Shown here in pieces: positions 8,457 through 36,757 of a stretch of DNA of 43,964 nt (its first letter is position 1; every line of letters begins with the position of its first letter). This DNA comes from a virus. The position numbers and the translations under genes were made by a program. The notes beneath the pieces are model-generated. The model saw only the letters and a program-made list of their open reading frames with translations. It made no database searches and was not told the DNA's origin. The stretch spans positions 1 through 43,964 of IMG/VR virus record IMGVR_UViG_3300028174_000006. One strand, written 5' to 3'.

Positions 8457-9590
8457 ATGGAAACGCACCTCGCAAGACTTTCTCCGTCCTCGGGGGACCT
8501 CAACCAACGTCGGGTCACCTACCTGAGTGGCCGGATGATTTTCTGGGGTCAAACCCTCAAGAAGGACGGGCTCAGCGACATCGCTGCTTCAGCCACCCGG
8601 ATTGGGATGCTGTTGAAGGAGCTTCTCGAGGAAGACTACACTGAGTCCATCTGGGCGGACATCTCAGAGGAGAGGCGCAGGCTCCGAGGCCTCATGTCGT
8701 TCTCCCGGGCAATCAGTGCACTGGGCCGCATCGTAGAGGACCTCGACGATGAGATCCTGAAGCCGCGTCGACTTCTGGCGTCTTCAGCACGGGTCGCCTC
8801 CCGGTACGCCGCTCGCTCGAAGTGGGAGGTCGAGGTCATGGTCCGCAACAAGCGGACGCGGAAGGTCGACACCAAGCTCACCACAGTGAGTGCCGACTCA
8901 GAAGAGACTGCCAAGGCCATCGCCGGAGCCAAGTACCGGTCTCAGGGCAACCTGCACGACGTGGGCTTCGCCCGCCCCAAGAAGGCTTCTGACAGTCTCT
9001 TCGAAGTGATCGGAGCGGCTGCCCGCCATATCTGGGGTCGTTCCGGTTGGTCCGTGTACAACATGAGGGACACCTACGCAATTACATTGCAAGGAGCCCC
9101 CGAGTACAGAGGCGCCAACTTCACCGATATCGACCACCTCCTCAAGATTGCGAATGAGGGCGACGTAGAGGACTTCCTCCACGCCTTGAAGGCAGGCCTT
9201 CGGAGATGGGGTCGCGCCCATTCCGAAGAGATCGACAGCGGCGACTACCAGCCCAAGAAGGTCGGGATTTCCTTCATGGATGATTCCAACCAGCGGCAAG
9301 CCTGGGCCATAGACCTTGGTAGTGCGTTCAAAAAGCTCGGGATTCGGCAGGCCGCCACCACGATAGAGATCGGCAAGAAGACGGGCATCGAGTATGACGC
9401 CCGGAAGAAGCAGTTCACCGCTGAGATGAGCATGCTCCGGGGGGGCTTCCCGGCCACGTTGGTGAACCCTTCCACGGGTGGCAAGATGACGTTCCGCAAC
9501 CCAGAAGCCACCCGGGATCGCGAATACGAGGTTCAGTACTGGACCCTCTACGGACCTCAGGCCCATACTCTCCGCGTCTACAATGACTGA
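8457..9590 (+). CDS. Two-domain accessory protein with RVASRY signature
   Basis: 377 aa, no overall family recognised. Residues 1-~105 are helical (MLLKELLEEDYTESIWADIS; charged helix to ~100). The signature S-S-A-R-V-A-S-R-Y (RVASRY = 112-117) then separates this from a C-terminal part (from ~122) that starts with a beta strand (KWEVEVMVRNKRTRKVDTK), as in small transcription/SH3-like or phage inhibitor-type folds. The rest is alpha/beta (~180-377). The placement of the signature exactly between two domains is the pattern seen in several proteins here and suggests a linker or processing site. The ribosome site is close (AGAGG only 2 nt before ATG). Its end overlaps the ATGACTGAG of the next gene. 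Confidence 0.65.
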   Translation: METHLARLSPSSGDLNQRRVTYLSGRMIFWGQTLKKDGLSDIAASATRIGMLLKELLEEDYTESIWADISEERRRLRGLMSFSRAISALGRIVEDLDDEILKPRRLLASSARVASRYAARSKWEVEVMVRNKRTRKVDTKLTTVSADSEETAKAIAGAKYRSQGNLHDVGFARPKKASDSLFEVIGAAARHIWGRSGWSVYNMRDTYAITLQGAPEYRGANFTDIDHLLKIANEGDVEDFLHALKAGLRRWGRAHSEEIDSGDYQPKKVGISFMDDSNQRQAWAIDLGSAFKKLGIRQAATTIEIGKKTGIEYDARKKQFTAEMSMLRGGFPATLVNPSTGGKMTFRNPEATRDREYEVQYWTLYGPQAHTLRVYND

Positions 9591-9597
9591 GGCTCTT

Positions 9598-10692
9598 ATG
9601 AAGAATAGCAAGGTCGCCCAGATCCTCGCAGAAGAAGGGTTGATCACTGCCTCCTATACGGGGAACCCAGACGGCCAGCCCATCTACCCGGTAGAGATCG
9701 ACCACGGCTACGACCAGCCCCTCTCCGGGGGCACCGACATCATGAAGCGTGTCGTCGACCAGTTCCGCGAGGAGCAGGGTTCCGAGCCCCGAGAGAAGAA
9801 CCCTCGGCTTGCGAGCCTAAAGATCAAGCAGAAGACCTTCTCAGACGGGGTGTACACCCACAAGGAGAAGGGCCAGTTCGAGGTCTTCGACGGCTCCAAG
9901 AAGCTCGGTGAGCTTTGGAAGGGCATGGACGGTTGGTGGCACACCAGTCTGGATGGACCCGGTGGCGTGAGGTTCCGCAAGCGGAAGGACGCAGTGGACT
10001 CCTTCCTTGAGGGAATGGGCAAGGGTCAGGGTCCTCGCGAGTTCGAGTACACCAACGAGGAGCTGGATCGCAAGAACCGACGCCGGTCTTCGGAGAAGCG
10101 AGCCCGATCTCGTGAAGTCGAAGCGGAGATGCTGGGCGAGCGTCTGATGGCTCTCACATCCCGGACGCCAAGCGAACACCTGAAGAGGGTGGACCGTTAC
10201 TACAGCGTGGTCCATGAGATCGGGATGAACCTCACCCGACTGTCGGAAACGACTTCCCCGACCTTTGATGAGGAAGAGCGCCAGCTGCTTGTGCGGGAGA
10301 TCCTCGAGGGCTTGCGCTACATCAAGCGCGACCATCCCCTTTCCGTGCTCCGGGCCACTTTGGAGGAGGCCGAGGCCGCACAGAGCTGGATCGATGGCGT
10401 GGGGGATCTCCTAAGTCAGTACAAGCCACCCAAGCGGGCGGGCTACGGGTTTTCTGAACAGGACCTGGAAGACCTGGGTTTCTCCCCCGGAGAGAGGGTC
10501 AAGCTGCGGAAGGCGGTGAACTGGGTCAACCGAGGCGGGCTTCGCAACAGGAAGGAGCTTCGCACCGCATGGATTGCTGAAGGAACCACCCTGGAAGTGG
10601 GTAGCTACGATTTCCCTCGCATCGAAGTTCTTGACGTAAAGACGGGCGAGCTGTTCACTGTTCGTGCGAGAGAGCTTGAGGCTGCTACATGA
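9598..10692 (+). CDS. Hypothetical protein, 364 aa, with capsid-targeting-like N-terminus
   Basis: No family recognised. I prefer the ATG at 9598 (TGAGG 5 nt upstream) to the ATG at 9583 overlapping the previous gene. The N-terminus M-K-N-S-K-V-A-Q-I-L-A-E-E-G resembles phage T4 capsid-targeting leaders (M-K-x-Y-x-x-F-I-x-E) and includes an L-x-x-E match to the T4 prohead protease preference. A similar peptide is encoded at 20480. Residues ~85-150 look beta-rich with aromatics (FEVFDGSKKLGELWKGMDGWW). The middle is a basic helix (KNRRRSSEKRARSREVEAE), then a helical bundle. The C-terminus is a beta domain. The downstream gene overlaps by ATGA. Confidence 0.6.
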   Translation: MKNSKVAQILAEEGLITASYTGNPDGQPIYPVEIDHGYDQPLSGGTDIMKRVVDQFREEQGSEPREKNPRLASLKIKQKTFSDGVYTHKEKGQFEVFDGSKKLGELWKGMDGWWHTSLDGPGGVRFRKRKDAVDSFLEGMGKGQGPREFEYTNEELDRKNRRRSSEKRARSREVEAEMLGERLMALTSRTPSEHLKRVDRYYSVVHEIGMNLTRLSETTSPTFDEEERQLLVREILEGLRYIKRDHPLSVLRATLEEAEAAQSWIDGVGDLLSQYKPPKRAGYGFSEQDLEDLGFSPGERVKLRKAVNWVNRGGLRNRKELRTAWIAEGTTLEVGSYDFPRIEVLDVKTGELFTVRARELEAAT

Positions 10693-11639
10693 GTTCCCGC
10701 ACTGCCCGCGCTGATGTGACCCCCGTCCGCCAGAGGACGCAATACAGCTGTATGGCAACGTCCATGATGATGTGCCTCCGAGCTCTCGGGCATGACTGCA
10801 ACGAGGACGAGGTCAACAAGGTGATGGGGGCGACCCCATCCAAGGGCGCGTGCTGGGAGCAGGCCCTCGCCACGGCCCAGCACTACGGCTGCCGGGCCAC
10901 GTTGACGTGCCCCTCAACGGTCACCCAGCTGAAGGGTTGGACCGACGCGAAGAAGCCGGTGATGATCGCCTGGAACCCCGAGGGTCGCGACTGGTCCCAC
11001 GCCTCGTGTGTGTTCGACGTCACTGAAGGTCTCCCAGAGGACATCCCGCCTGAGGCGATCGTCCAGGGCTCCGGCCCTGGTCTGTACGTGTGGGTCGCGG
11101 ACTCGAACATTCCGCACCCGGAGAAGCTCATCCGCGTTGTGCACGAGGACGAGTTCTACAAGAAGTGGTACGAGAAGTGGCCTCAGTACCTGGTGCGGCG
11201 TCCTGCCTTGATGCTGGAGCGAGAGATCTCCGCCGGGGGGCGCCAGATGATGGCCTCGTCCAGGGGCCTGGTTCCTCGGGCGTCTCCCGATAGGGTCTCC
11301 TCACGCTACGCAGCGTCCCAGGGCAGACTCGATCAGAGAACCAGGTCCATCATCAACGGGCAACTGGACCGCCGAGGCCTCGGCGGCAACGCTCGCTTTC
11401 GCCGAGCCGAAGACGGCTATGTCCTGGCTCTCGACATCCTGGGTCAGGAAGGCATCGAGCTTGACGAGGTGGTGAATTCCCACCTGTTCCGCCTGGACGC
11501 CGGGACCTTGAACATCGACCTGGCCTTCAGCAACTCGGACGATCCGTTCTCTCCCCTGAGCATCTCCAACTCGATGTTGCACCTGTCGTACACGAAGCTC
11601 GGGAACGACAAGTACGAAGTTCTGACCTACCTGACTTGA
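10689..11639 (+). CDS. C39-like cysteine peptidase fused to a second domain
   Basis: 316 aa. Residues ~10-140 look like a papain-like C39-type peptidase: R-T-Q-Y-S-C21-M-A-T-S (nucleophile Cys in the Q-x-x-x-C-x-x-x-S context), a central helix pair, S-H104-A-S-C-V-F-D (catalytic His strand) and an Asp/Asn at V-A-D-S-N (138-140). C39 peptidases cleave leader peptides or other peptides; the target here is unknown. A linker ending in P-D-R-V-S-S-R-Y (RVSSRY = 202-207) leads to a ~100-residue C-terminal alpha/beta domain without a family match. The linker signature is shared with neighbouring proteins. No transmembrane or ABC domain is present, so it is not a bacteriocin exporter. Overlaps the upstream gene (ATGA). 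Confidence 0.6.
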   Translation: MSSRTARADVTPVRQRTQYSCMATSMMMCLRALGHDCNEDEVNKVMGATPSKGACWEQALATAQHYGCRATLTCPSTVTQLKGWTDAKKPVMIAWNPEGRDWSHASCVFDVTEGLPEDIPPEAIVQGSGPGLYVWVADSNIPHPEKLIRVVHEDEFYKKWYEKWPQYLVRRPALMLEREISAGGRQMMASSRGLVPRASPDRVSSRYAASQGRLDQRTRSIINGQLDRRGLGGNARFRRAEDGYVLALDILGQEGIELDEVVNSHLFRLDAGTLNIDLAFSNSDDPFSPLSISNSMLHLSYTKLGNDKYEVLTYLT

Positions 11640-11646
11640 GGATCTG

Positions 11647-12648
11647 ATGCACAGCCGATACCAGAAGTTCTACGACGAGGTCCTGGCCTTTCTCGAGAGC
11701 GGTGAGTTTCGCAAGTTGACAGGACTGGCCGAGCGAATTGACGCTCAGGTGGGAGAGGACACGACAGTCGCTCTCGTTACCATGATCCACAACGACCGGG
11801 CCACTAGCCAGCGGGTGAAGTCTCGAGCAGAGACGGCACACCGTTTGCTCTCGTTCAAGAGGACTTCCCCTGAGCGGCTCGCCGCCCGATACGCCCAGAA
11901 GATGGCGAGTGAAGTGTACGTGGACGAGAACGGGGTGGCCCATGACGACGAGGGCAATTCCTGGCCGGTCAGAGGGTGGGGTGAGGGCACTTACGGCGGG
12001 CGCAACAAGACCCGTATCGTGATGCAGGCTCCCCAAGAGCGGAGCTACTCTCCCAGGAAGCCTCGGAACACTGTCCCTGATCTCCAGAAGCGTATCCGCA
12101 GGCTGCTCCTGGTTTTGGAGACGACCCGGGAGACCAAGTCCAAGAAGTTCCTCCGAGAGAAGTCGAATTCGACTTCCATGACTGCCGGACAGCTTCGGTG
12201 GGTTGAGAGCCTGGAGAACAAGTACAAGCGAAAGCTGGCCGACATGCCGGATGACCCGCCCCTCAAGATCACCTTCTCTGGGGTGACAGTTGACGGGAGC
12301 AAGTTGCGACCTGCCGACCAGGCCAAGATCGAAAAGCACTTCGGCCTCACCCCTGGCAGGGGCAACGACCTCGTGATTGGCCCAAGGGTTTCAGCCCCTA
12401 CGCCTGTCTCGGCACCCAAGCCCTCGCCTGCGGGGCCTGTGGATCGGTTCCAATTCGATCGCGGGGAAATCCAGAAGATGGTCCCCATCTTGGAGCGCCT
12501 CGTAGCTAAGACTCAGAACCGGATGTTCGAGAGCTTCTTGAGTGATCTGAAGGCGGGCAAGGGCCTCTCCGACAAGCAGCTGAAGGCGATCCGACACAAG
12601 CTGTACCAGACCGGGGGACGCGCCGACGCTGCCCTCTTTAAGAGGTAG
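11647..12648 (+). CDS. Helical accessory protein with RLAARY signature
   Basis: 333 aa, no family recognised. Residues 1-~72 are a helical domain; P-E-R-L-A-A-R-Y (RLAARY = 77-82) follows, then a short loop and a mostly helical, basic C-terminal region. Two helix pairs of similar pattern are visible: S-M-T-A-G-Q-L-R-W-V-E-S-L (~178-190) and G-L-S-D-K-Q-L-K-A-I (~306-315), reminiscent of the 'L-S-x-K-Q-x-x' helices at the ends of DNA-processing proteins. A Pro/Ala-rich linker (VSAPTPVSAPKPSPAGP) lies near 250-268. GAGG is properly spaced before ATG 11647. The last gene of this hypothetical block. Confidence 0.6.
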   Translation: MHSRYQKFYDEVLAFLESGEFRKLTGLAERIDAQVGEDTTVALVTMIHNDRATSQRVKSRAETAHRLLSFKRTSPERLAARYAQKMASEVYVDENGVAHDDEGNSWPVRGWGEGTYGGRNKTRIVMQAPQERSYSPRKPRNTVPDLQKRIRRLLLVLETTRETKSKKFLREKSNSTSMTAGQLRWVESLENKYKRKLADMPDDPPLKITFSGVTVDGSKLRPADQAKIEKHFGLTPGRGNDLVIGPRVSAPTPVSAPKPSPAGPVDRFQFDRGEIQKMVPILERLVAKTQNRMFESFLSDLKAGKGLSDKQLKAIRHKLYQTGGRADAALFKR

Positions 12649-12674
12649 CGGTACAGAGCCTATCCTCCCCTCCG

Positions 12675-12690
12675 GGTAGAGGATACTATG
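12675..12690 (+). promoter_or_regulatory. GGTAGAG leader element
   Basis: GGTAGAGGATACTATG lies at the start of the next gene (ATG 12688). It shares the GGTAGR...CTAT pattern with 6336, 8428, 21808 and 22446. GAGG serves as Shine-Dalgarno with 5-nt spacing. Confidence 0.35.
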
Positions 12691-13587: not shown

Positions 13588-13599
13588 TAGGGAGTTCAG

Positions 13600-22490: not shown

Positions 22491-23384
22491 ATGTCTACCC
22501 CGAACCCTCAGCGTGTCGCCGTTCGCTTCGCCCGGCAGAAGCATGCAGGCCAGGTGAAGACCGCTGGCGAAGTCCGGTTCATCAAGGACCGGGGCGGCGA
22601 CAAAGGCGAGTGGGCCTGGAACACTCCGGGACCTTCGGAGCGCGAGATCCACGACAACTTCTTGTTCAATGCTCGGCACCTGAAGCCTCTTGCGCAGGTC
22701 CTTCGCTCCACCTTGATGGCCCTGGGCCACGCAACCTCGGCGCACGCCCGGTTCGTCAAGATCAAGAGCAGGAACGTGAGCCCGGACGGCAACCTCGGCG
22801 GGAAGGGGTACATTCAGAAGATCACGGACATGAGACGCCAGTTGATGAACAGCATCGAGGCCCTGTCGGCGATCGGAGACACCGTTCACGACGAGCTCAA
22901 TGCGCCTCACTGGGATCCGGCCGAGGACACCCTGGACTCCCGCGACAGGGAAGAGGTCAAGGAGATCGTGGAGGACGCCGAGGCCATCAAGGAAGACCCC
23001 GAGGGCTGGGCGGAAGACCAGGAAGACGAGTTGGACGAGGATTCCCCACAGGGAAAGACAGCCCGCGTCAAGCACCGGCCTCTCCAGCGATCCCTTCTGG
23101 ATGCCCAGACTGCGTTGAACAACCTCTCGCACCGAGTACAGAACCTTCAGGGGCGAGTGCGGTCCATGAAGATCAACGCTGAAGAAGCCGAGCAGGACTT
23201 CAGTTTCGAGGACAGCCCCCGCTTCTTCGACACCCTGGTGCAGGAAGCGGACGAGCTGGCGAGCCTGGCCTGGGACTTGCACCGGACTACAACTAAGGCA
23301 GATGTGGGCCTGTCTCGCTATCGGCTGGCTTCTGTCAGTTCCGAGCGAGTAGCCTCCCGCTATCTGGAGAAGAACCATGAGTGA
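22491..23384 (+). CDS. Helical protein carrying the RVAxR[YF] signature at both ends
   Basis: 297 aa. I prefer ATG 22491 (AGAGGAG at 22475-22481, 9 nt upstream) over ATGs at 22440 and 22458. The protein begins P-Q-R-V-A-V-R-F (8-13) and its last residues are S-E-R-V-A-S-R-Y-L-E-K-N-H-E (286-291). Between the two tags is a largely helical, acidic body (E-E-V-K-E-I-V-E-D-A-E-A-I-K) with a disordered Glu/Asp stretch. No enzyme family recognised. The end overlaps the next gene (ATGAGTGA). Tags at both termini are hard to explain by a catalytic function and favour a targeting or processing signal. Confidence 0.6.
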   Translation: MSTPNPQRVAVRFARQKHAGQVKTAGEVRFIKDRGGDKGEWAWNTPGPSEREIHDNFLFNARHLKPLAQVLRSTLMALGHATSAHARFVKIKSRNVSPDGNLGGKGYIQKITDMRRQLMNSIEALSAIGDTVHDELNAPHWDPAEDTLDSRDREEVKEIVEDAEAIKEDPEGWAEDQEDELDEDSPQGKTARVKHRPLQRSLLDAQTALNNLSHRVQNLQGRVRSMKINAEEAEQDFSFEDSPRFFDTLVQEADELASLAWDLHRTTTKADVGLSRYRLASVSSERVASRYLEKNHE

Positions 23385-25704: not shown

Positions 25705-28460
25705 TCCAGCCCTCGGCCAGCCGCGTTGCCCGAGGGCACGCGCCGTTCAGCCAGTGCATGCACGAGGGGTGTAAGAGCTCCCCGGAGCACGAGTGCATCT
25801 GGGCGGACGGCCGAGGACGTGCGTGGTTCTGCGGTAAGCACTACGGACCCTGGCAGAAGGCGGAGGGTGATCGCGAGATCGTTAAGGAGCGGAAGGCGAA
25901 GAGCGGGGTCGTGGGCAAGAAGTACGGTGAGGAGCCTAAGCAGGCGTCGCAGCCGGACAGCCGGGTGGCCGCGAAGTTCCTGCATGCCTCTCTTGCTCAC
26001 AAGAAGTCCGTCGCGCTGATGAAGTTCCTGTCGGGGTTCGCTCGGACGCTCGGACCCAAGGCGGGCAAGCACGTCTACGTGGTCGGAGGTGCTGTACGGG
26101 ACTTCGTTCTGGACCGGCCTATCAAGGATGTGGACGCGGTCGTTGACGCGGTCAACCTGGGGCATGATTCGGAATGGTTCGCGGACAAGCTGATTCGTGC
26201 GGTGCCTGCGCGGATGAACAAGAAGACCAACCAGTGGGGCGTCGTTCTTCTGAAGGTGCTTGAGCCCTGGGATCTCAACGGGCTTGACATGGAGGGCGAG
26301 GAAATCGAGATTGCAAACGCCCGGACCGAGTCCTACGAGGAGGGCGGGTACAAGCCCACGGGCGTGGCGCCGTCAACAATCCAGGACGATGTCTACCGGC
26401 GAGAGCTTACCTACAACACCCTGCTGATCCGCTTGATGGCCCTGGCGAACGGCCCAGACAAGAAGGACATCCTCGATCTGACGGGGTGCGGACTCCGGGA
26501 CCTGGCCGAGGGTCGGATGCAGTGCCCGGCGGACCCAGGCAAGACCTTCTCGGATGACCCCAGTCGAATGATCCGGGTGATCAAGTTCGCCCTCCGGTAC
26601 GGACACAAGCTCACCCCGGACACTCGCGCTGCCATCAAGCAGAACGCGCCGAAGCTCAAAAACATCCCCTCGTCTCACCTCGCCCAGCTTCTCACCCAGA
26701 TCGTTCTCACCGAGAGCACCTGGAAGAAGGCGCTGGCCATGATGGAGGACCTGGGACTGCTGGAGCCGGTACGGGAACTGATCCTAAAGGACAAGGGCTT
26801 CCGCTCCACTCTTGAGAACTACGTTCGCGACCAGCGCATGGATCTCGTGTTCGGGCTTCTGGACGTGGGTCTTCCTCTGGGTGCCAGCATCCAGTTCTTG
26901 CCCTCAAGCGAGCAGGTTCGGGTTCGCGAGATCACCCTGGGGATGGAGCGGGATGACGCCTGGGAGTTCCTGGGTATGCTCAAGAACCCAGGCAACGCAT
27001 ACAAGGACAAGAGTTTCGTTCCCGACCTGGCTCGGAAGTACGACCTCGAGCTTCGGGACATGGGCAGACTCGGGGCTCAAGTGAGGCAGATCGGCCAGAA
27101 GCTCTTGCTGGACAACCCCGACCTGGCGCAGCAGGCCTCGCGCCTGAAGCAAATGATCTCAAGGGAACTGGAAATGAACTCTGACGGCCTGAAGCAGAAG
27201 TGGGGCGCGACGATCGCCGAGGCGGTTCTGGGTGTGCCCCGCCAGGGCTCAGTCAAGATCGCTCGCAGCTACACCAAGATCGCGATGTTCGACTTTGACG
27301 GAACGCTGTTCCGTTCCTGGGAGAAGACACCGACCTGGTGGAAGGGTTCGGAGCTGGACGACGGTCCCTTCTCCTTCTTTGTGCGGGAGGAGTCCCTTGG
27401 CGAGCCTTGTGTGCCCGATCGGCCCTCGTCGAACTACTGGATCCCCACCCCCGTGCAGGAAGCCAAGAAAGCGATCCGCGAGGCAAGCACCTACACCGTC
27501 GTGGTCACGGGGCGCATCCGCAGGCACAGCAAGCGGGTGAAGGAGCTCCTGGGACAGAAGGGACTCCGGTTTGACGCGATGTACTTCAACCCCGGTATGT
27601 CAGCGGCTCGGTTCAAGGTCGTGGTGTTGCGCAACCTTCTGGCCGGTCTCAACACGGTGAGTGAGATTGACATCTGGGAGAACGAGAACATCACCACGTA
27701 CGAGTCTGACCTGAAGGCTACATCCAAGGCGCTGGGCCGTCCTCTCAAGATCCAGACGTTCCCCATCCACCAGCCTGCGCACGAGCTGATCTGCTCGCCT
27801 GAGGACTTCCACCTTCCTTCCCAGAACTCGGCGATCCCCAGAGAAGTCCGCATGGCAGCGGAGACCGGAGACGGCAGCGGTGTTGGGCTCTTCATCCCTG
27901 TTCCGAAGGAGATCTCCGCCCAGTTCCCCAGAAAGGAAGAGGACACCTCGCCCCAGCATGTCACTTTCCTGTACGTGGGGGCTGTTCCGAAGGCGAGGCA
28001 GGACGAGTTTCTTCAGGTTCTGGAGACGGCTCTGGTAGACCTGGACGCCCCGGTGCAAGCCTCCCTGGGGGAACTGGACAGGTTTGTGACTCCCACAGGC
28101 AAGGTGGTGTTCAGCACCGTCCGGTTTTCGAAGGATCTGAGCGCGGTTCGCGACCAGGTCTGGGCAAAGCTTGAGGGAGCGGGCTTCGATGTCGCCGACA
28201 AGTTCCCTCGGTACAACCCTCACTCCACGATTGCGTATCTGGACGACCCTCACTCCGACATGAAGCTGGTGGCTCCGACCGGCAGCTGGCAGTTCGGCGA
28301 GATGGAGGTCTGGGGGCTTCCCAAGAAGCACGTGATCCCCTTCGGCGAGAGGGTGTCTCTTAGGGAACCCCTGCCCGAAGCCAGCGTGCAGCGGGTGGCC
28401 CGCCTGCTTGAGATGCGCGGCAGTGTGGTTGAAGTTCGCCGCAGGCGAGGCCAACCGTGA
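25701..28460 (+). CDS. RNA-repair fusion: CCA-type nucleotidyltransferase + HAD phosphatase + 2H phosphoesterase
   Basis: 919 aa, TTG start overlapping the previous stop (TTGA). Order: (1) ~18-48, Cys/His cluster (C-M-H-E-G-C ... F-C-G-K-H). (2) Signature S-R-V-A-A-K-F (88-93). (3) Pol-beta-type nucleotidyltransferase with G-G-A-V-R-D (129-134), catalytic D143/D145 (K-D-V-D) and R-R-E-L-T-Y-N; then D-P-S-R-M-I-R-V-I-K-F-A, as in tRNA CCA-adding enzymes and poly(A) polymerases. (4) HAD phosphatase F-D531-F-D533-G-T-L-F with W-W, V-V-V-T-G-R and W-E-N-E-N, matching the HAD_SAK ('Swiss Army Knife' RNA-repair) layout. (5) 2H phosphoesterase: H753-V-T755 and H841-S-T843. Further tag-like sequence at N- and C-termini (SRVAR; QRVARLL). 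The enzyme set handles RNA ends, consistent with tRNA repair. Assignments of parts 3-5 are strong. Confidence 0.85.
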   Translation: MIQPSASRVARGHAPFSQCMHEGCKSSPEHECIWADGRGRAWFCGKHYGPWQKAEGDREIVKERKAKSGVVGKKYGEEPKQASQPDSRVAAKFLHASLAHKKSVALMKFLSGFARTLGPKAGKHVYVVGGAVRDFVLDRPIKDVDAVVDAVNLGHDSEWFADKLIRAVPARMNKKTNQWGVVLLKVLEPWDLNGLDMEGEEIEIANARTESYEEGGYKPTGVAPSTIQDDVYRRELTYNTLLIRLMALANGPDKKDILDLTGCGLRDLAEGRMQCPADPGKTFSDDPSRMIRVIKFALRYGHKLTPDTRAAIKQNAPKLKNIPSSHLAQLLTQIVLTESTWKKALAMMEDLGLLEPVRELILKDKGFRSTLENYVRDQRMDLVFGLLDVGLPLGASIQFLPSSEQVRVREITLGMERDDAWEFLGMLKNPGNAYKDKSFVPDLARKYDLELRDMGRLGAQVRQIGQKLLLDNPDLAQQASRLKQMISRELEMNSDGLKQKWGATIAEAVLGVPRQGSVKIARSYTKIAMFDFDGTLFRSWEKTPTWWKGSELDDGPFSFFVREESLGEPCVPDRPSSNYWIPTPVQEAKKAIREASTYTVVVTGRIRRHSKRVKELLGQKGLRFDAMYFNPGMSAARFKVVVLRNLLAGLNTVSEIDIWENENITTYESDLKATSKALGRPLKIQTFPIHQPAHELICSPEDFHLPSQNSAIPREVRMAAETGDGSGVGLFIPVPKEISAQFPRKEEDTSPQHVTFLYVGAVPKARQDEFLQVLETALVDLDAPVQASLGELDRFVTPTGKVVFSTVRFSKDLSAVRDQVWAKLEGAGFDVADKFPRYNPHSTIAYLDDPHSDMKLVAPTGSWQFGEMEVWGLPKKHVIPFGERVSLREPLPEASVQRVARLLEMRGSVVEVRRRRGQP

Positions 28461-31400
28461 AGCCCTCCCCCGCGAGGGTGGTGGCGATGATGCAGGGCAG
28501 AACTGCCTGCATCATTGCTGCGGGGCAATGGGGAGGCCATCGGTGTTTGCTGAAGAACCGCGACCGGAACTACGCCCCCAAGGTAAAGATCTACCACGAG
28601 ATCCGCGAGGGCGTTGAGGTTCTGTATCTCAAGGATGAGGGGACGGGCTGGGTCGAAGGCCTGAACGAGTTCGGCATCGGCGTTGTCAACTCCGCCTTGC
28701 AGGTGGCCCGCGACGAGGCCGAGAAGCGTCTCGTCAAGGAAGTGGGCAAGAAGTCGAAGGACGGAGCTCGGATCCTAAAGGTCCTGGAGCAGAAGAGCCT
28801 CGATGAGGCTCTGGCTATTGCGTGCGAGTACCAGGGCGGTGTCAAGGGGCATACCTTCCTGGTATCTCCCGACAAGACCCTGAGCATCGAGCACACGTCT
28901 AAGCACGATTGCGTGACCAAGACAGTGCGCGGGGATCAAATCCACACTCGGACCAACCACGGGTTCGCGCACGAAAATGCGGGGTACACCCACGATTCAG
29001 ACGACTACCTTTCCTCGGTGACACGTAGGAACCAGGCGCAGAAGACGCTCCGGGGTCTCAAGTCCCCCGCTGACATCGCGCCTGCTCTCTACGGGAAGCG
29101 GAAGAAGGACCGCGCCGACCCGAACAACATGGTCCGAAATACGGACAACATGATCACCTCGAGCCAGATGGTGCTTGACTCCACAGCGAAGGAGGTGTTG
29201 TTCTACATCCTGCCCGGAGACACCGAGTATCTCGGCTATGAGGCGGACCTCCCTGCGGGATACAAGCCCAAGGTGGTACTGAAGGTGTTCAAATACACCG
29301 AGCTCAGCGAAGACGGGAAGTTCGAGACGAAGCCCTTCAAGAAGGCGGCGTCGAAGCTGCCCATCATGGACCCCCTCTTCAACCTGAGGGAGGCAGCGAA
29401 GCAGCTCCTGCTGCTCGAGGACCATCTGGCGCACCCGGCGAAGTTCTGTCCAGACTGCATCCGCAAGCACCTCCTCACGGCCGAGGCATTCCTCGAGGAG
29501 GCGGTTGGCCTGGACAAGACGGGCACTCTAACAGAGAAGCTGAGGCCGCTGCCTGGGGTTGTTCGGCAGCTCTGGACCCTGTATCAGAACAAGGCTCCTT
29601 CTCAGCAGCTGGGCCAGCAGGTGCGCAAGCTCCGCAAGCAGCTTGTTATCCAGTCTTCCGCTGTTAGGGTCGCCTCTCTCTCGAGGTTCTTCACAGGCTA
29701 CCGCGCACTGTCGGCGGAGCCCGAAGACCCCCAGAAGCCTGGACACCGTTTCTGGGAGTTCCAGGATTGTAGAGTCCATACCGTGATCCAGCCCAAGCAG
29801 GGTCGCGCACACCTGGTCATGATTCAGCTGGAGGACCCCCGTGATTGTTCTGGTCGGGGAGCGGGTTCCACTGTCCTGAAGGAGATCCTCCGCCTTGCGG
29901 ATAGTACGGACACAGAGCTTTCCCTGATCCCAGCAGCGGTGGGTTCTAAGAACCTGTCCTCTGCACAATTGGCTGCATGGTACAAGCGCTCCGGATTCAC
30001 CCCGCAAGGGTCGGGAATCCGCCGTCGGTGGGTTCGGTTGCCTGGTGGGGTCGCCCCATCGAACAAGTACCAATTGCTGATCAGAGACTCCACAGGCCGA
30101 GAGGAGAGCTTCGAGTTCTTTGCGGATGACATCCAGGAGGCCCGCGACCACGCATGGTCTATGGCGCACGGTTGGGATGTGTCCACTCTCGCCCCCAAAG
30201 GTTTCAAGGAGCCCGAGATCGTCTCGTTTCGCAGCGAGGGGGGTCGTTGGAGGGACATCAACGCGTCCGCAGCTTTCAAGTCCAAGAAGAAGGTGAAGAC
30301 CCCTGATGGTGTCGAGCGGGTGGTGTACGAGTACACCGAGCAGCACCACGACAAGCAGGACAAGGAAAAGGCGAACCGGGTCGAGAAGATCCGCCAGGCC
30401 CTCCCGGATCTCCGATCTCAGTACAAGCGCGAGCTCACCTCCGACGACCCCAGAGAGCGCCTCACAGCCCTTGCAGTGGCGCTTATTGACGAGACCTACG
30501 AGCGGGTAGGCAACTCCGAATCCGCCAAGGACGGCCACTTCGGGGTCACGGGCTGGCTCAAGAAGCACGTCTCCTTCTCCGGGAACACCGCCACCATCAA
30601 GTACACGGGCAAGTCCGGGGTCGACCAGGAGAAGAAGATCTCCTCGGCAAAGGTGGTCTCAGCCTTGAAGGCAGCCCTCAAGGGCAAGAAGCCGGACGAC
30701 CAAATCCTTTGTGAGGGCGACGACTGCGTGGTCGGGGCAGAGGGCGTGAACGCATACCTGAAGGACTTCGGCGTCACAGCGAAGGACCTCCGGGGCCTGC
30801 ACGCCAACGAGGAAATGAAGGCCCGGCTGAAGCAAGTCCGCTCGAAGGGGGGCACGCTGCCCTCGGACAAGAAGGAGCGGGAGAAGATCCTCAAAGCAGA
30901 GTTCAAGGAGGCTCTCGAGGGCGCTGCGGAGGCCGTAGGTCATGCCCCTTCGATGCTGCGCTCCAGCTACCTGGTTCCCGGCCTGGAGGAGGCTTTCTTG
31001 AAGGAGGGGAAGCCCCCCCAGAAGCTGAACAAGCAGGGGTTTGTGTCCGCCCACCGAGTGGCTGAGCGATATGCTCGGGTCCAGTTCCCTAAGAATAAGT
31101 GGATTGATGTTTCCACCTCAGATCTTGAACGGGCTGAGGGAGAGACCGTCTGGGACCTCTACTCCATCTCGTACGGGCAGTTGGGCACCCACATCCCAGA
31201 CCTTGCCACTTTTCTGAGCAAGTACAAGATCCTCAAGCTGATTGACCTGGATGCCGACCAGGCTCCGGACGCTTTTATTGCGTACAAGGTCACCCCGTTC
31301 GGAAACAAGTTGGCCTTGATGGGCACGGACGGCACCCGCGCTGCGAAGTCTGCAGTGGTGCGGCAGACCATGGCTCTAATCAAGCAACGGGGCTGGTACG

Positions 31401-34400
31401 GAGAGGCTTCCCATAAGGTAGCTCGGATGTTTGAGTCTGCGGGAGCTCCCCGCATCACGGACGAGAAGGTAGTCCGCGCTGTCCTCAAGGGGAAGGACAT
31501 CAAGTGGGAGGGCGACGGCTACTATCAGCGTCAGCTCGCAAGTCTGGGCATGGTCCAGAAGGCACTGTACGGACACCCGAAGGTTCGGGGTGCTTCTGTG
31601 AAGACCGCAGCCTTCGACATCACCTCCCACTGCCCTCACTGCATGGGCATCTTGCACGACGGCGCCAAGTTCTACGACAGGTGTGGTGATTGTCCCTACG
31701 AGGTCAACCTCGGCGGTTTCTCGAAGCACTGGAACGACACTCCCTGCGAAGGGCTCCCCTGCGAGAGGATGTCCAAGGACGAGGAATGGCAGCCGATCCC
31801 CACTGAAGACCCTCGCCTGCCTATCATGGAGGAGCGAGCTGCAAAGCAGAAGGCCTGGTTCGCCCAGAGCGGCTGGGGGTCGAAGACCGCGAGCCAGCGA
31901 CTGATGTTCCCGGCGTCAGAGCTGAAGAGCGGAGTGGGGGAGTACCAGGCAGGGTGGTGGCGGGGCTTCAACCCCCGATCTCGGGAAGCTCGCGAGTGGG
32001 CGAAAACCGTGGACTTCTCGGAGCCGGTGGGGGTTCTGGTACACCGCGACGGGACGGTGGCTTTCTCCGACGGTCACCATCGAGCCATGGCGGGGAAGAT
32101 CTTGGGGCGGGATATCCCCATCAAGATCACGTACAGCAAGCTGTTCCCGGAAGTCTGGGCCTGGTATCTGGGGGAGATCCGGAAGGGGCGAACCCTCCGT
32201 CAGATTAACCCCGACGGGGGATACCTGGACTATGTCTACCAGGAGCAGCGACGTACTGCTGCCAGCAACCAAGACATCATTGAGGCCCCCCACAACCACC
32301 ACCCGGTGAAGGTGGAGCCCCCCCAGGCAAAGCGGAAGGAGTTCCCGTTCGAGGGCTACCTTGACTTCCAGGGCATCCAGATCGACGTTGAGAACAAGAA
32401 GGGTGCCACCCGCTCTGGCGAGGCACCCGACGGGACCGAGTGGTCGATCAAGATGCACGCCCACTACGGCGAGATCCGAGGGACCGAGGGCACTGACGGG
32501 GACAAGCTGGACGTGTACGTGGGGGATAACCACGACTCCTCGGTGGTCGTCGTCATCCACCAGCAGGACCCTGGGACTGGAAAGTTCGACGAGGACAAGG
32601 TCATGCTCGGGTTCGACTCACCCGAGGAGGCGATCGGTCTCTACAAGAAGCAGTACGACCGTCCCGGCTTCTTCAAGGACGGTGAGTTCCTCACTATGCC
32701 TGTGGGTCAGTTCTGGCGCTGGGTCCAGGAAGATCGGAACAAGGGCAAGAAGATGCATGCGTCTGCATTTCGGGTCGCCTTGCGCTGGGCTTCGCGAGAC
32801 CAGGGCTCAATCAACGACCCGATGTTCAATGAGTCCTTGCGGACTCTGTTCAGTACGAAGACCCGCCTTGAGAAGGAAGACGAGGCAACCGAGGACCTCA
32901 TCAAGCAGTCCCCTACCAAGAAGCCGCCTCGTACTGACCTCCAGACCCGCAAGGTGAAAGAGACGGACGAGGAACAGGACCCGGACGAGAAGCAGGACAA
33001 GAAGGACCGGTCCCAGAACTACAAGGACTCCTCGGCCCGTCGGGTCGCCTTGAGGTTTCTGGCCGAGGAGACTAAGAAGGTTCGGGTTCGGAAGAAGGAC
33101 ACAGGGCAGGTCACTGAGGTCACTGAGGACACCCTACGTGACCGAGGCAGTGAGTACGAGTCTCTCGAGGAGGGAGACGCTTCGGAAGGCGATTCTCCGA
33201 AGGACGACGGGGGCAAGGCGGAGGTTCCTCCGAAGCCAGACCCCAGCAACCTGCCCGGCTCCGACGACGACCCAGACCCGAAGAAGTTTGAGGACTTCCA
33301 GAAGTCCTTGATGGACCGCTATCTGGCTCTGGGCCTGGCTGAGGACGAAATCAAGGGTGTCACCGAGGGTCTTTCCGACAAGAGCGACGCTGAGGCAGCC
33401 GTAGAGCTTCTGGAAGAGGAAGCCGAGAAGGCTGGCGCGGCGAAGGCTGAAGCCGAGGCTGAAGCGAAGGCCGAGGCTGAAGCGAAGGCCAAGGTGAAAA
33501 GGGAGAAGGCTGAGAGCAAGGCAAAAACCGAGTTGATCGACAACGTCGTGAACGTGCTTTCCGAGACCTCCGAGAGTACGGTCTCCCGAGCCATTAATGA
33601 TCTCAAGCCTGAGCAATACGCCGTCTTCAAGGAAACCCTGGACGCAGCGCGCACGGCCCTGGCCGCCGCAGCGCCGGAAGACCTGGCGGAGTTCATCAAG
33701 GACGCAAAGCAAGCGCAAGAGGACCTGGAGGACACGGGGGATGTCGGGGAGAAGCTTCATGCTAATCCGAAGAAGATGGCCGAGTTCCTGGCTAAGGTCG
33801 AGCACTACGAGAAGGTGATCGACAACCCGGTGGTCGACGCGGACAACCCTCTCTCCGAATCTGGTGCTCCTCTCACGGAGGGCGATCTTCGAAAAGCTCA
33901 GGATGTAGCGGTGGCCCGCGCCGAAACGGCTGTGGCCAAGTACCGCCAGATGGACCAGGACGGGCGTGTCCGCCATCTGGACAAGCTGGCTCGCGAGATG
34001 GAAGACCTCAAAGAAGGTGACCCTCGACGCATCGAGATAGAGGCTATCCAGAGGGGTCTGGTCGTAGCAGGGGCCCTGGAAGACGGAAAGGATGCCCAAG
34101 GGGTGGGTTCTTCGATGGCGAGGCTCGTCGGCGCTGCGGATGCGGGCGGCAACTTGCGCAAGATCCTGAGCATCGGCACCCTGGGGGGCGACGAGAGCCT
34201 CGGTTCGGATGACCAGGCTTTCATCCGCGATGTCTACGATGACCTCACAGGATCGCAGTTCCTGGGTCTGGTTTCGGACGACCACCCGGCGTACCCCATC
34301 GCTGAGCTTCTGTCGGACCCAGAAAAGAACAAGAACATGTCGGCCGACGACCACGCCATGATGAAGGAGATGATGATCGACTTCTTGGTGATGGACACTG

Positions 34401-34849
34401 CCTTCCTTGACCCCGCGACAACCCGCAAGGTCGGCCCAGGCGCGAAGGTGGGTGAGCATGACGCCGAGGCAAAGAAGACCCGAGCGCAGGTGGGCAAGAA
34501 GCAGAAGGAGTTCCCGAAGGACGTGAAGGAACAGAAGAGCTGGGTGGACACCCTTCTCCAGGCGCTGGGCAAGCACATCAAGAAGACTCCTTCCAAGAAG
34601 ACCCCCGCAAAGCCGACTTCTGCCCCGCCCCCCGCCGAGAAGAAGCCCGCGCCGCAGCCCTCCGAGAAGGAGGTGGTTGAGGAAGAGCATGCAGCGGGCA
34701 CGGTCTGGAAGACGGACGAGGGCAAGTACGGGGCAAAGAACCCTGCGGGCGACGTGGACTACTTCGATGACAGGGCGGGAGCTGACGCGCACGCGCAGGG
34801 CCCTGCAAAGAAGGTTGCTTTGACCTGGGACTTTGCCCCCTGGGGGTAG
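28457..34849 (+). CDS. Giant multi-domain 'polyvalent' protein (2130 aa)
   Basis: GTG start in a GTGA overlap. Order: Ntn-hydrolase/C45-like (~12-250; candidate nucleophile C18 in T-A-C-I-I, N-R-D-R, T-N-H-G); Cys unit C331-P-D-C334-x-R-K-H; tag RVASLSRF (404); GNAT-like (G466-R-G-A-G); topoisomerase IB (~608-854; R683, K719, R779, H829, Y838); tag RVAERY (867); alpha/beta domain with tag KVARMF (987); zinc ribbon (C1059, C1062, C1076, C1079); ParB-like D-G-H1207-H-R; InPase-like domain (~1295-1428: G-E-I-R-G-T-E-G-T-D-G-D-K-L-D-V-Y-V); tags RVALRW (1439) and RVALRF (1529); long Ala/Glu/Lys coiled coil (~1650-1690); helical part; Lys/Pro tail. Matches the 'polyvalent protein' architecture of phages and conjugative elements. 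Domains probably act in the host after injection; this is inference. Confidence 0.85.
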   Translation: MKPSPARVVAMMQGRTACIIAAGQWGGHRCLLKNRDRNYAPKVKIYHEIREGVEVLYLKDEGTGWVEGLNEFGIGVVNSALQVARDEAEKRLVKEVGKKSKDGARILKVLEQKSLDEALAIACEYQGGVKGHTFLVSPDKTLSIEHTSKHDCVTKTVRGDQIHTRTNHGFAHENAGYTHDSDDYLSSVTRRNQAQKTLRGLKSPADIAPALYGKRKKDRADPNNMVRNTDNMITSSQMVLDSTAKEVLFYILPGDTEYLGYEADLPAGYKPKVVLKVFKYTELSEDGKFETKPFKKAASKLPIMDPLFNLREAAKQLLLLEDHLAHPAKFCPDCIRKHLLTAEAFLEEAVGLDKTGTLTEKLRPLPGVVRQLWTLYQNKAPSQQLGQQVRKLRKQLVIQSSAVRVASLSRFFTGYRALSAEPEDPQKPGHRFWEFQDCRVHTVIQPKQGRAHLVMIQLEDPRDCSGRGAGSTVLKEILRLADSTDTELSLIPAAVGSKNLSSAQLAAWYKRSGFTPQGSGIRRRWVRLPGGVAPSNKYQLLIRDSTGREESFEFFADDIQEARDHAWSMAHGWDVSTLAPKGFKEPEIVSFRSEGGRWRDINASAAFKSKKKVKTPDGVERVVYEYTEQHHDKQDKEKANRVEKIRQALPDLRSQYKRELTSDDPRERLTALAVALIDETYERVGNSESAKDGHFGVTGWLKKHVSFSGNTATIKYTGKSGVDQEKKISSAKVVSALKAALKGKKPDDQILCEGDDCVVGAEGVNAYLKDFGVTAKDLRGLHANEEMKARLKQVRSKGGTLPSDKKEREKILKAEFKEALEGAAEAVGHAPSMLRSSYLVPGLEEAFLKEGKPPQKLNKQGFVSAHRVAERYARVQFPKNKWIDVSTSDLERAEGETVWDLYSISYGQLGTHIPDLATFLSKYKILKLIDLDADQAPDAFIAYKVTPFGNKLALMGTDGTRAAKSAVVRQTMALIKQRGWYGEASHKVARMFESAGAPRITDEKVVRAVLKGKDIKWEGDGYYQRQLASLGMVQKALYGHPKVRGASVKTAAFDITSHCPHCMGILHDGAKFYDRCGDCPYEVNLGGFSKHWNDTPCEGLPCERMSKDEEWQPIPTEDPRLPIMEERAAKQKAWFAQSGWGSKTASQRLMFPASELKSGVGEYQAGWWRGFNPRSREAREWAKTVDFSEPVGVLVHRDGTVAFSDGHHRAMAGKILGRDIPIKITYSKLFPEVWAWYLGEIRKGRTLRQINPDGGYLDYVYQEQRRTAASNQDIIEAPHNHHPVKVEPPQAKRKEFPFEGYLDFQGIQIDVENKKGATRSGEAPDGTEWSIKMHAHYGEIRGTEGTDGDKLDVYVGDNHDSSVVVVIHQQDPGTGKFDEDKVMLGFDSPEEAIGLYKKQYDRPGFFKDGEFLTMPVGQFWRWVQEDRNKGKKMHASAFRVALRWASRDQGSINDPMFNESLRTLFSTKTRLEKEDEATEDLIKQSPTKKPPRTDLQTRKVKETDEEQDPDEKQDKKDRSQNYKDSSARRVALRFLAEETKKVRVRKKDTGQVTEVTEDTLRDRGSEYESLEEGDASEGDSPKDDGGKAEVPPKPDPSNLPGSDDDPDPKKFEDFQKSLMDRYLALGLAEDEIKGVTEGLSDKSDAEAAVELLEEEAEKAGAAKAEAEAEAKAEAEAKAKVKREKAESKAKTELIDNVVNVLSETSESTVSRAINDLKPEQYAVFKETLDAARTALAAAAPEDLAEFIKDAKQAQEDLEDTGDVGEKLHANPKKMAEFLAKVEHYEKVIDNPVVDADNPLSESGAPLTEGDLRKAQDVAVARAETAVAKYRQMDQDGRVRHLDKLAREMEDLKEGDPRRIEIEAIQRGLVVAGALEDGKDAQGVGSSMARLVGAADAGGNLRKILSIGTLGGDESLGSDDQAFIRDVYDDLTGSQFLGLVSDDHPAYPIAELLSDPEKNKNMSADDHAMMKEMMIDFLVMDTAFLDPATTRKVGPGAKVGEHDAEAKKTRAQVGKKQKEFPKDVKEQKSWVDTLLQALGKHIKKTPSKKTPAKPTSAPPPAEKKPAPQPSEKEVVEEEHAAGTVWKTDEGKYGAKNPAGDVDYFDDRAGADAHAQGPAKKVALTWDFAPWG

Positions 34850-34893
34850 TTTTCCCTCCGACCGCTAAAACCGATCCTCTACAAGCCAAAGCT

Positions 34894-34915
34894 CGCTTCT
34901 CTCGCAGCAGAAGCG
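34894..34915 (+). terminator. Hairpin after the giant gene, candidate terminator
   Basis: CGCTTCT/AGAAGCG, 7-bp perfect stem with 8-nt loop, followed by GGTCTTTCG, 45 nt after the stop. Weak T-tract. The gap 34850-35006 also holds a TTTATAC element (34935). Confidence 0.4.
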
Positions 34916-34927
34916 GGTCTTTCGCGG

Positions 34928-34941
34928 TAACTCCTTTATAC
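34928..34941 (+). promoter_or_regulatory. Candidate promoter before scaffold gene
   Basis: TAACTCCTTTATAC ends at 34941. It matches TACCCTCTTTATAC (39532-39545) at 11 of 14 positions. Both follow a hairpin and precede a head-gene start. No -35 box is obvious, so it may be a phage-type late promoter with only a -10-like element. AGGAG (34995-34999) precedes the ATG at 35007. Confidence 0.35.
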
Positions 34942-35006
34942 ACAACACCGATAGTGTGTCGGCCCTGCCGCCCCGCTCAAGCTTTTCCTTCTTCAGGAGT
35001 ACTTCA

Positions 35007-36194: not shown

Positions 36195-36202
36195 GGGCTC
36201 TC

Positions 36203-36757
36203 TTGAAGCGGGAAGCAGACAACTTCATCGACTACCAAGCGAAAGCTGCCGAGTTCTCCGTAGGGGGAGTGGTGGTTCCGTTCGGTATGTTCGACAGCCA
36301 GGCCGGACGTGTCACAGCAGTGTGGCCCGCCATCGGCATGGTTGATGTGGAGATGTCGACGGGCAACCGTCGCTTCCCGGTCGAGGACCTTCAGAGGATG
36401 GACAACGACGGGTCGGCGAACCCCACCCACACCAACACGGGTGCGGGTGGCGCCGAGACAGTCAGCGTCCCAGGCGGACCGGTTCCTTCTCGGGTAGCCC
36501 AGGCATTCGCTCGCAAGGCGTTGTACTGGGCCTCCCGAGACCGCAAGTACCGGATGGACAAGTCCGAGTGTGACTCGGGTCGTCCCTGTTGCCCTCGGTG
36601 TGAAGGCGCTCCCCCTCTCAAGAAGGCCATCTACAAGCGGCGTGGCGGGGCCAGCGACAAGCTCTTGGGCTGTCCTCAGTGCATGTTCCTGATCAAGGAC
36701 ACCGACGTTATCAACCCCACCTCAGCCCCCCAGGTCGAAGTGGAAGTGACGGTCTAA
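36203..36757 (+). CDS. SH3/KOW-like plus zinc-ribbon protein
   Basis: 184 aa. TTG start at 36203 with AGGGG 6 nt upstream. Residues ~20-65 resemble an SH3/KOW barrel (G-G-V-V-V-P-F-G-M-F ... A-G-R-V-T-A-V-W). A linker carries P-S-R-V-A-Q-A-F (97-102) and then W-A-S-R-D, which also follows the tag at residue 1444 of the giant protein. C-terminal zinc ribbon: C130-P-R-C133 ... C157-P-Q-C160. Lies between scaffold and protease genes, so it is probably a head-assembly partner or packaged protein. Function unknown. Confidence 0.6.
   Translation: MKREADNFIDYQAKAAEFSVGGVVVPFGMFDSQAGRVTAVWPAIGMVDVEMSTGNRRFPVEDLQRMDNDGSANPTHTNTGAGGAETVSVPGGPVPSRVAQAFARKALYWASRDRKYRMDKSECDSGRPCCPRCEGAPPLKKAIYKRRGGASDKLLGCPQCMFLIKDTDVINPTSAPQVEVEVTV

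What the first reader, a model, noticed from the sequence alone, without database searches (positions are those of the whole stretch)
8790..36508. A recurring peptide signature R-[VL]-[AS]-x-[RK]-[YFW] tags the accessory proteins: possible capsid-targeting or protease-processing element
Seen in sequence: strict matches are RVASRY (protein 8457, residue 112), RVSSRY (10689, 202), RLAARY (11647, 77), RVAVRF and RVASRY at the two ends of the 22491 protein (8 and 286), and RVAERY, RVALRW, RVALRF in the giant 28457 protein (867, 1439, 1529). Looser ones are RVAAKF (25701, 88), RVASLSRF and KVARMF (28457, 404 and 987) and RVAQAF (36203, 97). They sit at termini or between domains, often preceded by S/P and followed by A/S. 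I see none in sheath, TerL, portal or capsid. Established: T4 and related phages package enzymes using short targeting peptides cut by the prohead protease. Inference: this is an analogous, internally usable tag that marks head cargo and lets polyproteins be cut apart. I do not recall this motif being described.
Basis: partly seen in the sequence, partly recalled or inferred. Interest (0 to 1): 0.85.

Follow-up and report, generated by a model that had tools for sequence, protein, structure and literature searches.

The report
Shared peptide tag on phage cargo
A family of giant bacterial viruses carries the same eleven-residue helical peptide at the ends or joints of dozens of otherwise unrelated proteins, several of them enzymes of the kind injected into host cells, which looks like an address label that sorts them into the virus particle, although its destination has not been shown.

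Summary
The motif occurs 9 times in 30 window proteins against 0.2 in shuffles. It is a trait of a jumbo-phage group: 18 hits in the 288-kb contig holding the window and 24 in a 297-kb relative, against about 1 in shuffles. A leave-one-genome-out profile gives 151 strong hits in 116 proteins of 82 families in eleven records, and little or no excess in Tunturi_5, phage G, Myrna and Skog. Consensus: [AP]-S-[AP]-x-[RK]-[VI]-A-x-[RK]-[YFWH]-[AL]. It sits at N-termini (29 against 7.9 expected), C-termini (31 against 11.1) or homology boundaries. Most carriers are unrecognisable; the recognisable ones are mainly effector types (ADP-ribosyltransferase, RNA repair, topoisomerase IB, pyrophosphatase, C39 peptidase). 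In the 288-kb genome TerL, portal, sheath, capsid and the identified replication enzymes lack it. Best reading: a docking tag loading early-acting proteins into the head, like T4 and P1 capsid targeting sequences but shared and position-free. Packaging was not testable here; cleavage at the motif has no specific support. A second tag (about 33 residues) marks a separate set, with no overlap.

The parts
8790..8807 (+). tag core RVASRY, residue 112 of protein 8457-9590
11292..11309 (+). tag core RVSSRY, residue 202 of C39-peptidase protein 10689-11639, in the joint between two predicted domains
   Evidence: AlphaFold2 (mean pLDDT 61.0) has 180-213 below pLDDT 50 between two better-predicted regions
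11875..11892 (+). tag core RLAARY, residue 77 of protein 11647-12648
22512..22529 (+). N-terminal tag core RVAVRF, residue 8 of protein 22491-23384
   Evidence: [RK]VA kept at this place in 8 of 8 family members
23346..23363 (+). C-terminal tag core RVASRY, residue 286 of 297 of protein 22491-23384
25962..25979 (+). tag core RVAAKF, residue 88 of the polyA polymerase / HAD_SAK / 2'-5' ligase protein 25701-28460, N-terminal of its first domain (125-)
29666..29689 (+). loose instance RVASLSRF, residue 404 of protein 28457
   Evidence: does not fit the strict pattern
31055..31072 (+). tag core RVAERY, residue 867 of protein 28457, 34 residues after the topoisomerase IB match (631-833)
31415..31432 (+). 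loose instance KVARMF, residue 987 of protein 28457
   Evidence: does not fit the strict pattern
32771..32788 (+). tag core RVALRW, residue 1439 of protein 28457, 15 residues after the InPase match (1300-1424)
33041..33058 (+). tag core RVALRF, residue 1529 of protein 28457
36491..36508 (+). degenerate tag RVAQAF (second arginine lost), residue 97 of protein 36203-36757, in the linker between two conserved halves; tag-like in 8 of 9 aligned members of the family
28457..34849 (+). 2130-aa polyvalent-type protein (topoisomerase IB, InPase, DarB-like PHROG)
10689..11639 (+). C39-type cysteine peptidase plus a variable C-terminal domain
   Evidence: Pfam; Foldseek; invariant Cys21, His104, Asp138 in 7 sequences
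36759..38264 (+). head maturation protease, the candidate processing enzyme
   Evidence: phrog_18299; homologues
40327..41199 (+). major capsid protein, no tag
   Evidence: phrog_2522
6400..6498 (+). second signature (tag B) at the N-terminus of protein 6388-6861

Best explanation
The signature is an 11-residue docking tag. A serine or proline cap is followed by a short amphipathic helix with conserved R, V/A, R and an aromatic residue (helix inferred from sequence and a low-confidence model). The phage appends it to proteins that must travel with its DNA. Shown: it is a protein-level, non-chance tag carried by many unrelated proteins, at termini or homology boundaries; its recognisable carriers are mainly effector-type enzymes, and in G001 the identified structural and replication proteins lack it. 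Inferred: one phage-encoded receptor in the prohead, such as a core protein or the inner capsid surface, binds the helix during assembly; tagged proteins are thereby caged with the genome and enter the next host with it. Several tags on one long chain would anchor it at several points. Removal by the head protease is possible but not needed.
For: Enrichment over within-protein shuffles and reversed proteins, confirmed by a leave-one-genome-out profile: G001 27 hits in 22 proteins and G006 43 in 29, with about 1 expected and 1 each on reversed proteins. Unselected flank positions are enriched. Terminal placement: 29 N-terminal against 7.9 expected and 31 C-terminal against 11.1, with R at residue 7-9 in 22. 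Internal tags lie a median 4 residues from a homology boundary against 30 for random positions, n = 67. In 9 tagged proteins with a Pfam match, 14 of 14 tags lie outside the matched domains. Carriers: ART-PolyVal 2, HAD_SAK, C39 2, TopoIB+InPase, polyA polymerase+ligase, then TopoIB 4, HAD_SAK 3, polyA polymerase 2, 2'-5' ligase 2, InPase 1 among 62 others, some of them homologues of the former. 128 untagged G001 proteins include gyrase, RecA, DNA pol III delta', thymidylate synthase and dUTPase. Varied codons argue for selection on protein. Polyvalent proteins with ART or InPase domains are argued in print to be packaged and injected (PMC5512222, passages). The first 30 residues of P1 DarB suffice for capsid entry (PMC9024508, passages).
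Against: No virion proteome or cultured tag-bearing member was found, so no tagged protein is shown to be in a particle. Most tagged proteins have no recognisable domain (14 of 20). Two PHROG profiles (phrog_4272, phrog_10089) span tags 1439 and 1529 of protein 28457, so there the tag is not clearly outside a conserved stretch. The bias to the late half of G001 is weak: 15 of 20 tagged genes lie below 150 kb, which holds 140 of 364 genes and 55% of coding residues. Among 62 further tagged proteins PhoH, PIN, AAA_30 and AAA_22 each match one, families not obviously injected. No receptor was identified.
Confidence: 0.55

Rival explanations
1. The motif is a recognition or cleavage element for a phage protease (the head maturation protease 36759 or the tagged C39 peptidase), which frees the units of fused proteins.
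For: Interdomain placement, up to four strict matches in one chain (G006_190729), and a head protease and an apparently intact C39 peptidase encoded in the same window. After N-terminal tags in the 22491 family a sharply conserved 'TAGEVRFIKD' begins. C39 enzymes are known to read helical leaders (recalled).
Against: Tags at residue 7-9 or 3-6 residues from the end would release almost nothing. No fixed residue downstream and no strongly enriched acidic position; the largest shown is E at +8, 11 cases, 1.7-fold (top seven residues per position shown). In T4-type and SPN3US-type substrates an acidic residue precedes the cut (recalled; the passages of PMC10052503 seen do not spell out P1).
Confidence: 0.15
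2. The tag sends proteins to an intracellular phage compartment, membrane or replication site rather than into the virion.
For: A short amphipathic basic/aromatic helix could bind a membrane or compartment shell; tagged genes are spread over the genomes, not only in the structural block.
Against: Replication and nucleotide enzymes, the expected clients of such a compartment, are in the untagged set of G001. Effector types dominate the recognisable tagged set.
Confidence: 0.12
3. The tag docks injected effectors on one shared host target inside the cell.
For: Carriers look like effectors.
Against: The tag is kept across phages of 38-64% GC, which probably infect different hosts (inference), and in degenerate form on a conserved protein encoded beside the head protease. 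This fits a phage-encoded partner better.
Confidence: 0.1
4. Chance or composition effect.
For: GC-rich genomes are rich in R, A and V codons; strict counts in G004, G008, G010 and LR745208 taken alone do not exceed the largest shuffle.
Against: Within-protein shuffles, reversed proteins, GC-rich control phages Myrna (strict 0) and Skog (strict 3), and Tunturi_5 (strict 0) do not show the excess of G001 and G006.
Confidence: 0.02

Closest known systems
T4 capsid targeting sequence (internal proteins IPI-III)
   Same: Short peptide of about 10 residues on otherwise unrelated cargo that is brought into the head. From passages of PMC9026906. That Alt-like ADP-ribosyltransferases are packaged and injected is from passages of PMC5512222.
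   Different: T4's is an N-terminal propeptide with processing residues. Here it is N-terminal, C-terminal or internal, with no sign of processing, and is on 20 (G001) to 27 (G006) proteins per genome at above 13 bits.
P1 DarB N-terminal packaging signal
   Same: Targets a very large defence protein to the capsid; phrog_10089 'DarB-like antirestriction' matches window protein 28457.
   Different: [quoted passage not shown] Here one consensus is shared by many proteins.
Polyvalent proteins of phages
   Same: ART-PolyVal, InPase and topoisomerase modules in phage proteins, some fused in long chains; predicted in print to be virion-packaged (PMC5512222, passages).
   Different: That work gives a metallopeptidase domain as the solution for processing; the passages read describe no shared short tag between domains, and the word 'linker' does not occur in its main text.
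SPN3US / phiKZ head propeptides
   Same: Giant-phage head and ejection proteins carry extensions removed in the prohead (PMC10052503, passages).
   Different: Those propeptides are 20-254 residues and are cut at a protease motif; this tag is 11 residues and recurrent.

Membership tests
T4-type capsid targeting sequence | same short peptide on several otherwise unrelated cargo proteins | tested here: met
   151 hits above 13 bits in 116 proteins of 82 families
T4-type capsid targeting sequence | located at the extreme N-terminus | tested here: not met
   29 of 151 N-terminal, 31 of 151 C-terminal, the rest internal
T4-type capsid targeting sequence | sufficient to bring a reporter into the head | not testable with these tools
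   needs an experiment
T4-type capsid targeting sequence | removed by the prohead protease | not testable with these tools
   no virion proteome; cleavage specificity of protease 36759 unknown
prohead-protease cleavage site (T4/SPN3US type) | fixed acidic residue before the cut | tested here: not met
   no strongly enriched acidic position from -6 to +11 around 104 core hits (largest shown: E at +8, 11 cases, 1.7-fold); the acidic requirement itself is recalled
phage polyvalent protein (for 28457) | several unrelated enzymatic domains in one chain, with polyvalent-type domains | tested here: met
   TopoIB 6.9e-24 and PF18823 InPase 1.5e-39; DarB-like phrog_10089 2.9e-20
phage polyvalent protein (for 28457) | carried in the virion and injected | not testable with these tools
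   gene lies between the portal and head protease genes
C39 peptidase (for 10689) | C39 fold with Cys-His-Asp | tested here: met
   PF13529 6.4e-7; PCAT1 and ComA peptidase domains top Foldseek hits, E about 1e-4; Cys21, His104, Asp138 invariant in 7 sequences (their role is inferred)

The most novel reading that the evidence does not exclude
These phages sort their proteins with two interchangeable peptide addresses. Tag A (the 11-mer) marks injected cargo, and tag B (a predicted helical hairpin of about 33 residues) marks a second, non-overlapping set for another destination. Any gene can join either cargo class by gaining a tag at either end or at a domain joint. This would be a phage counterpart of cellular targeting signals.
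Probability: 0.3. Interest if true: 0.87.

Novelty: new variant of a known kind. Interest (0 to 1): 0.72.

Why it matters
How phages choose which proteins to load with their DNA is known for only a few cases, such as T4 and P1, and in P1 no shared signal was found (PMC9024508, passage). A readable tag would let the injected proteome of a whole uncultured jumbo-phage group be listed from sequence. It would mark many orphan proteins as early-acting effectors and give a short, position-independent handle for loading foreign proteins into large phage heads. It also makes the packaging question directly testable.

Tried and rejected
Chance and composition: rejected for the group as a whole, with the weak single records named in the report. 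Recent DNA duplication of one segment: largely rejected, because tags use varied synonymous codons; a surplus of GTA at the valine in G006 (9 of 27 against 8% genome-wide) hints at some copying. A larger conserved domain: not supported, because column information falls from 0.6-3.5 bits inside -4..+6 to 0.2-0.6 bits outside it (-6 is raised by start methionines) and the carriers fall into 82 families. Phage-nucleus import tag: disfavoured because the identified replication enzymes of G001 are untagged; presence of a nucleus shell gene was not tested.

An equivalent tag in Tunturi_5 and phage G: for Tunturi_5, an unbiased four-residue enumeration gave nothing clearly above its shuffled copy. 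Phage G was not put through that enumeration; its profile hits were 6 forward and 4 on reversed proteins. Profile search of solved structures with tag B: no match. Short tblastn with tag B against phage records: no match. AlphaFold2 of the 22491 protein was of low confidence (mean pLDDT 51.6): both tags appear as isolated short helices below pLDDT 50, used only as weak support. A scan of viral contigs for a narrow N-terminal DNA form of the tag gave 4 stretches: one contig has this group's capsid and TerL, three have neither match, and my gene calls in three of the four stretches showed no tag-A pattern, so nothing was built on it. Literature: six searches turned up no description of the motif in their listings. 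The strings RVASRY, RVAARY, RVASRF and VASRYL occur in no paper of the held library; LIRLAS and AILAGL gave five papers with unrelated titles.

Rows dropped before counts: only G001 proteins of 170-1300 aa, outside the window stretch, without a profile hit and not split by a tile edge (128 given); 25 of 69 families were shown. 'Untagged' there means no profile hit: two of the 128 hold a bare pattern match without the flanks (RVSGRW in L106:13258-13992 and KVAVKF in L100:13345-14787). In one search, 62 of 69 tagged proteins of nine genomes (7 split by tile edges). In one search, 44 of 52 tag-B proteins. LR745208 and phage G were read for 400 kb each and Myrna for 160 of 165 kb; G002, G005 and G010 lack their last 1.3 to 6.4 kb. 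My gene caller is a simple codon-usage one. Orthologous tagged proteins recur between records, so the records are not independent. The tag is too short to be searched for in all cultured phages, and this was not done.
Full report
Check of the observation. All twelve listed instances are at the stated residues, and the strict pattern gives 9 matches in the 30 window ORFs that I took as genes, against 0.2 in shuffled proteins, with none of 2,000 shuffles reaching 9. The window is a piece of a jumbo phage: its TerL, capsid and four accessory proteins are 100% identical to a 288-kb IMG/VR contig, G001. Relatives reach 485 kb (LR745208, capsid 84%); Tunturiibacter phage Tunturi_5 and Bacillus phage G are more distant (capsid 49% and 40%).

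The motif as a family trait. Strict counts against mean shuffles are: G001 18/1.25, G006 24/1.17, G007 8/1.0, G009 6/0.70, G002 5/0.72, G005 5/0.53, G003 5/0.46, G010 4/0.69, G004 3/0.48, LR745208 5/1.37 and G008 (38% GC) 2/1.06. Tunturi_5 has 0 and phage G has 0. For G004, G008, G010 and LR745208 the strict count alone does not exceed the largest shuffle. Around the capsid gene in 41 loci of at least 9 kb, some of them from the same records, there are 33 strict hits against 2.6, and 24 of 41 loci have at least one. Among four-residue patterns in unbiased enumeration, RV..RY ranks first in G006 and third in G001, although the best pattern of one shuffled copy reaches similar ratios on smaller counts.

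The consensus. Around 104 core hits the positions that were not searched are enriched: A/P at -4 (47 cases), S at -3 (49), A/P at -2 (73), A/L at +6 (66). The tag is thus [AP]-S-[AP]-x-[RK]-[VI]-A-x-[RK]-[YFWH]-[AL]. The S/P start fits a helix cap and the rest an amphipathic helix (inference). A profile trained without the genome being scanned, at about one false hit per proteome, finds 27 hits in 22 proteins (G001), 43 in 29 (G006), 17 in 16 (G007), 15 in 13 (G009), 14 in 10 (G002), 13 in 10 (G003), 12 in 8 (LR745208), 11 in 11 (G008), 11 in 8 (G005), 9 in 8 (G010) and 6 in 5 (G004). Reversed proteins give 0 to 3 in these eleven records. Tunturi_5 has 1. Phage G has 6, with 4 on reversed proteins. 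The GC-rich control phages Myrna and Skog give 2 and 3.

Where it sits. Of 151 hits above 13 bits in 116 proteins of 82 families (eleven records), 29 are within the first 15 residues (7.9 expected) and 31 end within 20 of the C-terminus (11.1 expected). The arginine falls at residue 7, 8 or 9 in 22 cases. Internal tags lie a median 4 residues from the end of a homology stretch, against 30 for random positions; 76% against 44% lie within 25 (n = 67). Part of this may arise because alignments stop at the tag. In nine tagged proteins with a Pfam match (one, NUDIX, below cut-off), 14 of 14 tags are outside the matched domains. Against this, two long PHROG profiles span the tags at 1439 and 1529 of protein 28457. 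The C39 protein model (mean pLDDT 61.0) shows two regions (about 15-178 and 214-316, the second with its own weak stretch 259-286) joined by a stretch below pLDDT 50 (180-213) that holds the tag.

Behaviour in relatives. In the family of the 22491 protein, [RK]VA stands ahead of a variable spacer and a conserved 'GEVRFIKD' in 8 of 8 members, although the following R-aromatic pair is degraded in several. Two more relatives have RIAQRH and SIARRQ there. C-terminal tag-like segments are in the window copy, L256, G006, G002 and G003. In the C39 family the conserved peptidase half ends in 'GRQVMAS' or close to it, and the sequence after it is replaced wholesale between relatives. Tag-like segments stand at the joint, further inside or at the new C-terminus in most of them, though L260 shows none. 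Relatives lacking the peptidase half keep the tag. In the HAD_SAK family it is near the C-terminus in 3 of 3, although two read RVAFLH or RVAALH. The protein encoded just before the head protease (36203) has a degenerate tag in the linker between its conserved halves in 8 of 9 aligned members.

What carries it. In the window: TopoIB+InPase (28457), polyA polymerase+HAD_SAK+2'-5' ligase (25701) and C39 (10689). In 20 further proteins: ART-PolyVal twice, HAD_SAK, C39, SWIM, a sub-threshold NUDIX, and 14 with no match. In 62 others, which include homologues of these: TopoIB 4, HAD_SAK 3, polyA polymerase 2, 2'-5' ligase 2, and one each of InPase, C39, PhoH, PIN, PAP2, AAA_30, AAA_22, pentapeptide types and others. 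By contrast, 128 G001 proteins without a profile hit include DNA pol III delta', gyrase A and B, RecA, 5'-3' exonuclease, thymidylate synthase, dUTPase, deoxynucleoside kinase and sigma-70 region 4 (25 of 69 families shown). AAA_30 and AAA_22 appear in both lists. Tagged proteins are more often genome-specific: G006 20 of 27 against 73 of 239 overall; G001 13 of 20 against 148 of 271, a weak excess. But 5 of 20 and 4 of 27 are in families of six or more records.

Mechanism. Shown: a selected, protein-level, movable tag enriched on a functional class among the recognisable carriers. Inferred: docking in the prohead. The class matches proteins argued in print to be packaged and injected (PMC5512222, passages). 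T4 and P1 give precedent for short capsid-targeting peptides (PMC9026906 and PMC9024508, passages), and the genome encodes a head protease. Against a pure cleavage-site reading stand the extreme terminal positions and the lack of a fixed acidic residue. No receptor was found; candidates are head-block proteins with relatives in most tag-bearing records and none found in Tunturi_5 and phage G (36203, 38276, 39641, 22491), but phylogeny alone could give that pattern.

A second signature. The enumeration also exposed 'TASDRSxLIRLASxLPxGSxERKAILAGL' (tag B): 65 copies in 52 proteins of eight records, 43 of them starting within residues 1-6, others C-terminal or internal. Tag A (118 proteins, counting two in phage G) and tag B (52) never share a protein; 3.1 were expected with length weighting, P(0) = 0.03. 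Only 2 Pfam families matched among 44 tag-B proteins. A viral-contig scan gave 49 loci. One window protein (6388) carries it.

Verdict. The targeting reading is the best available and is untested; the processing reading is weak.

Noticed in passing
6388-6861 (6400-6498), and 52 proteins in G001-G006, G009, G010: Second recurring signature of about 33 residues, tag B (LIRLASxLPxGSxERKAILAGL), mostly N-terminal, never on a tag-A protein.
   Followed up: partly
10689-11639; L259-L264, L003: A C39-type cysteine peptidase is fused at the same joint ('GRQVMAS' or close to it) to quite different C-terminal regions in its relatives, as if it were a carrier of swappable cargo.
   Followed up: partly
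25701-28460: One protein joins polyA polymerase / CCA-type head, HAD_SAK and 2'-5' RNA ligase domains, an all-in-one RNA repair candidate.
   Followed up: no
4833-6341: Gene with a ROS/MUCR-like zinc finger near the start and HNH/homing-endonuclease PHROG matches further on, beside the sheath-homologue ORF.
   Followed up: no
G008 (L123-L138): The AT-rich relative is instead rich in LE.RIAR.E-type patterns (17 to 32 proteins per pattern), coiled-coil-like.
   Followed up: no
G006 tag codons: The valine of tag A is GTA in 9 of 27 cases although GTA is 8% of valine codons genome-wide, a hint of DNA copying between genes.
   Followed up: no
2-4882, minus strand: A 1627-aa open frame lies antisense to the sheath-homologue ORF; probably a by-product of GC-rich codon usage.
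   Followed up: no
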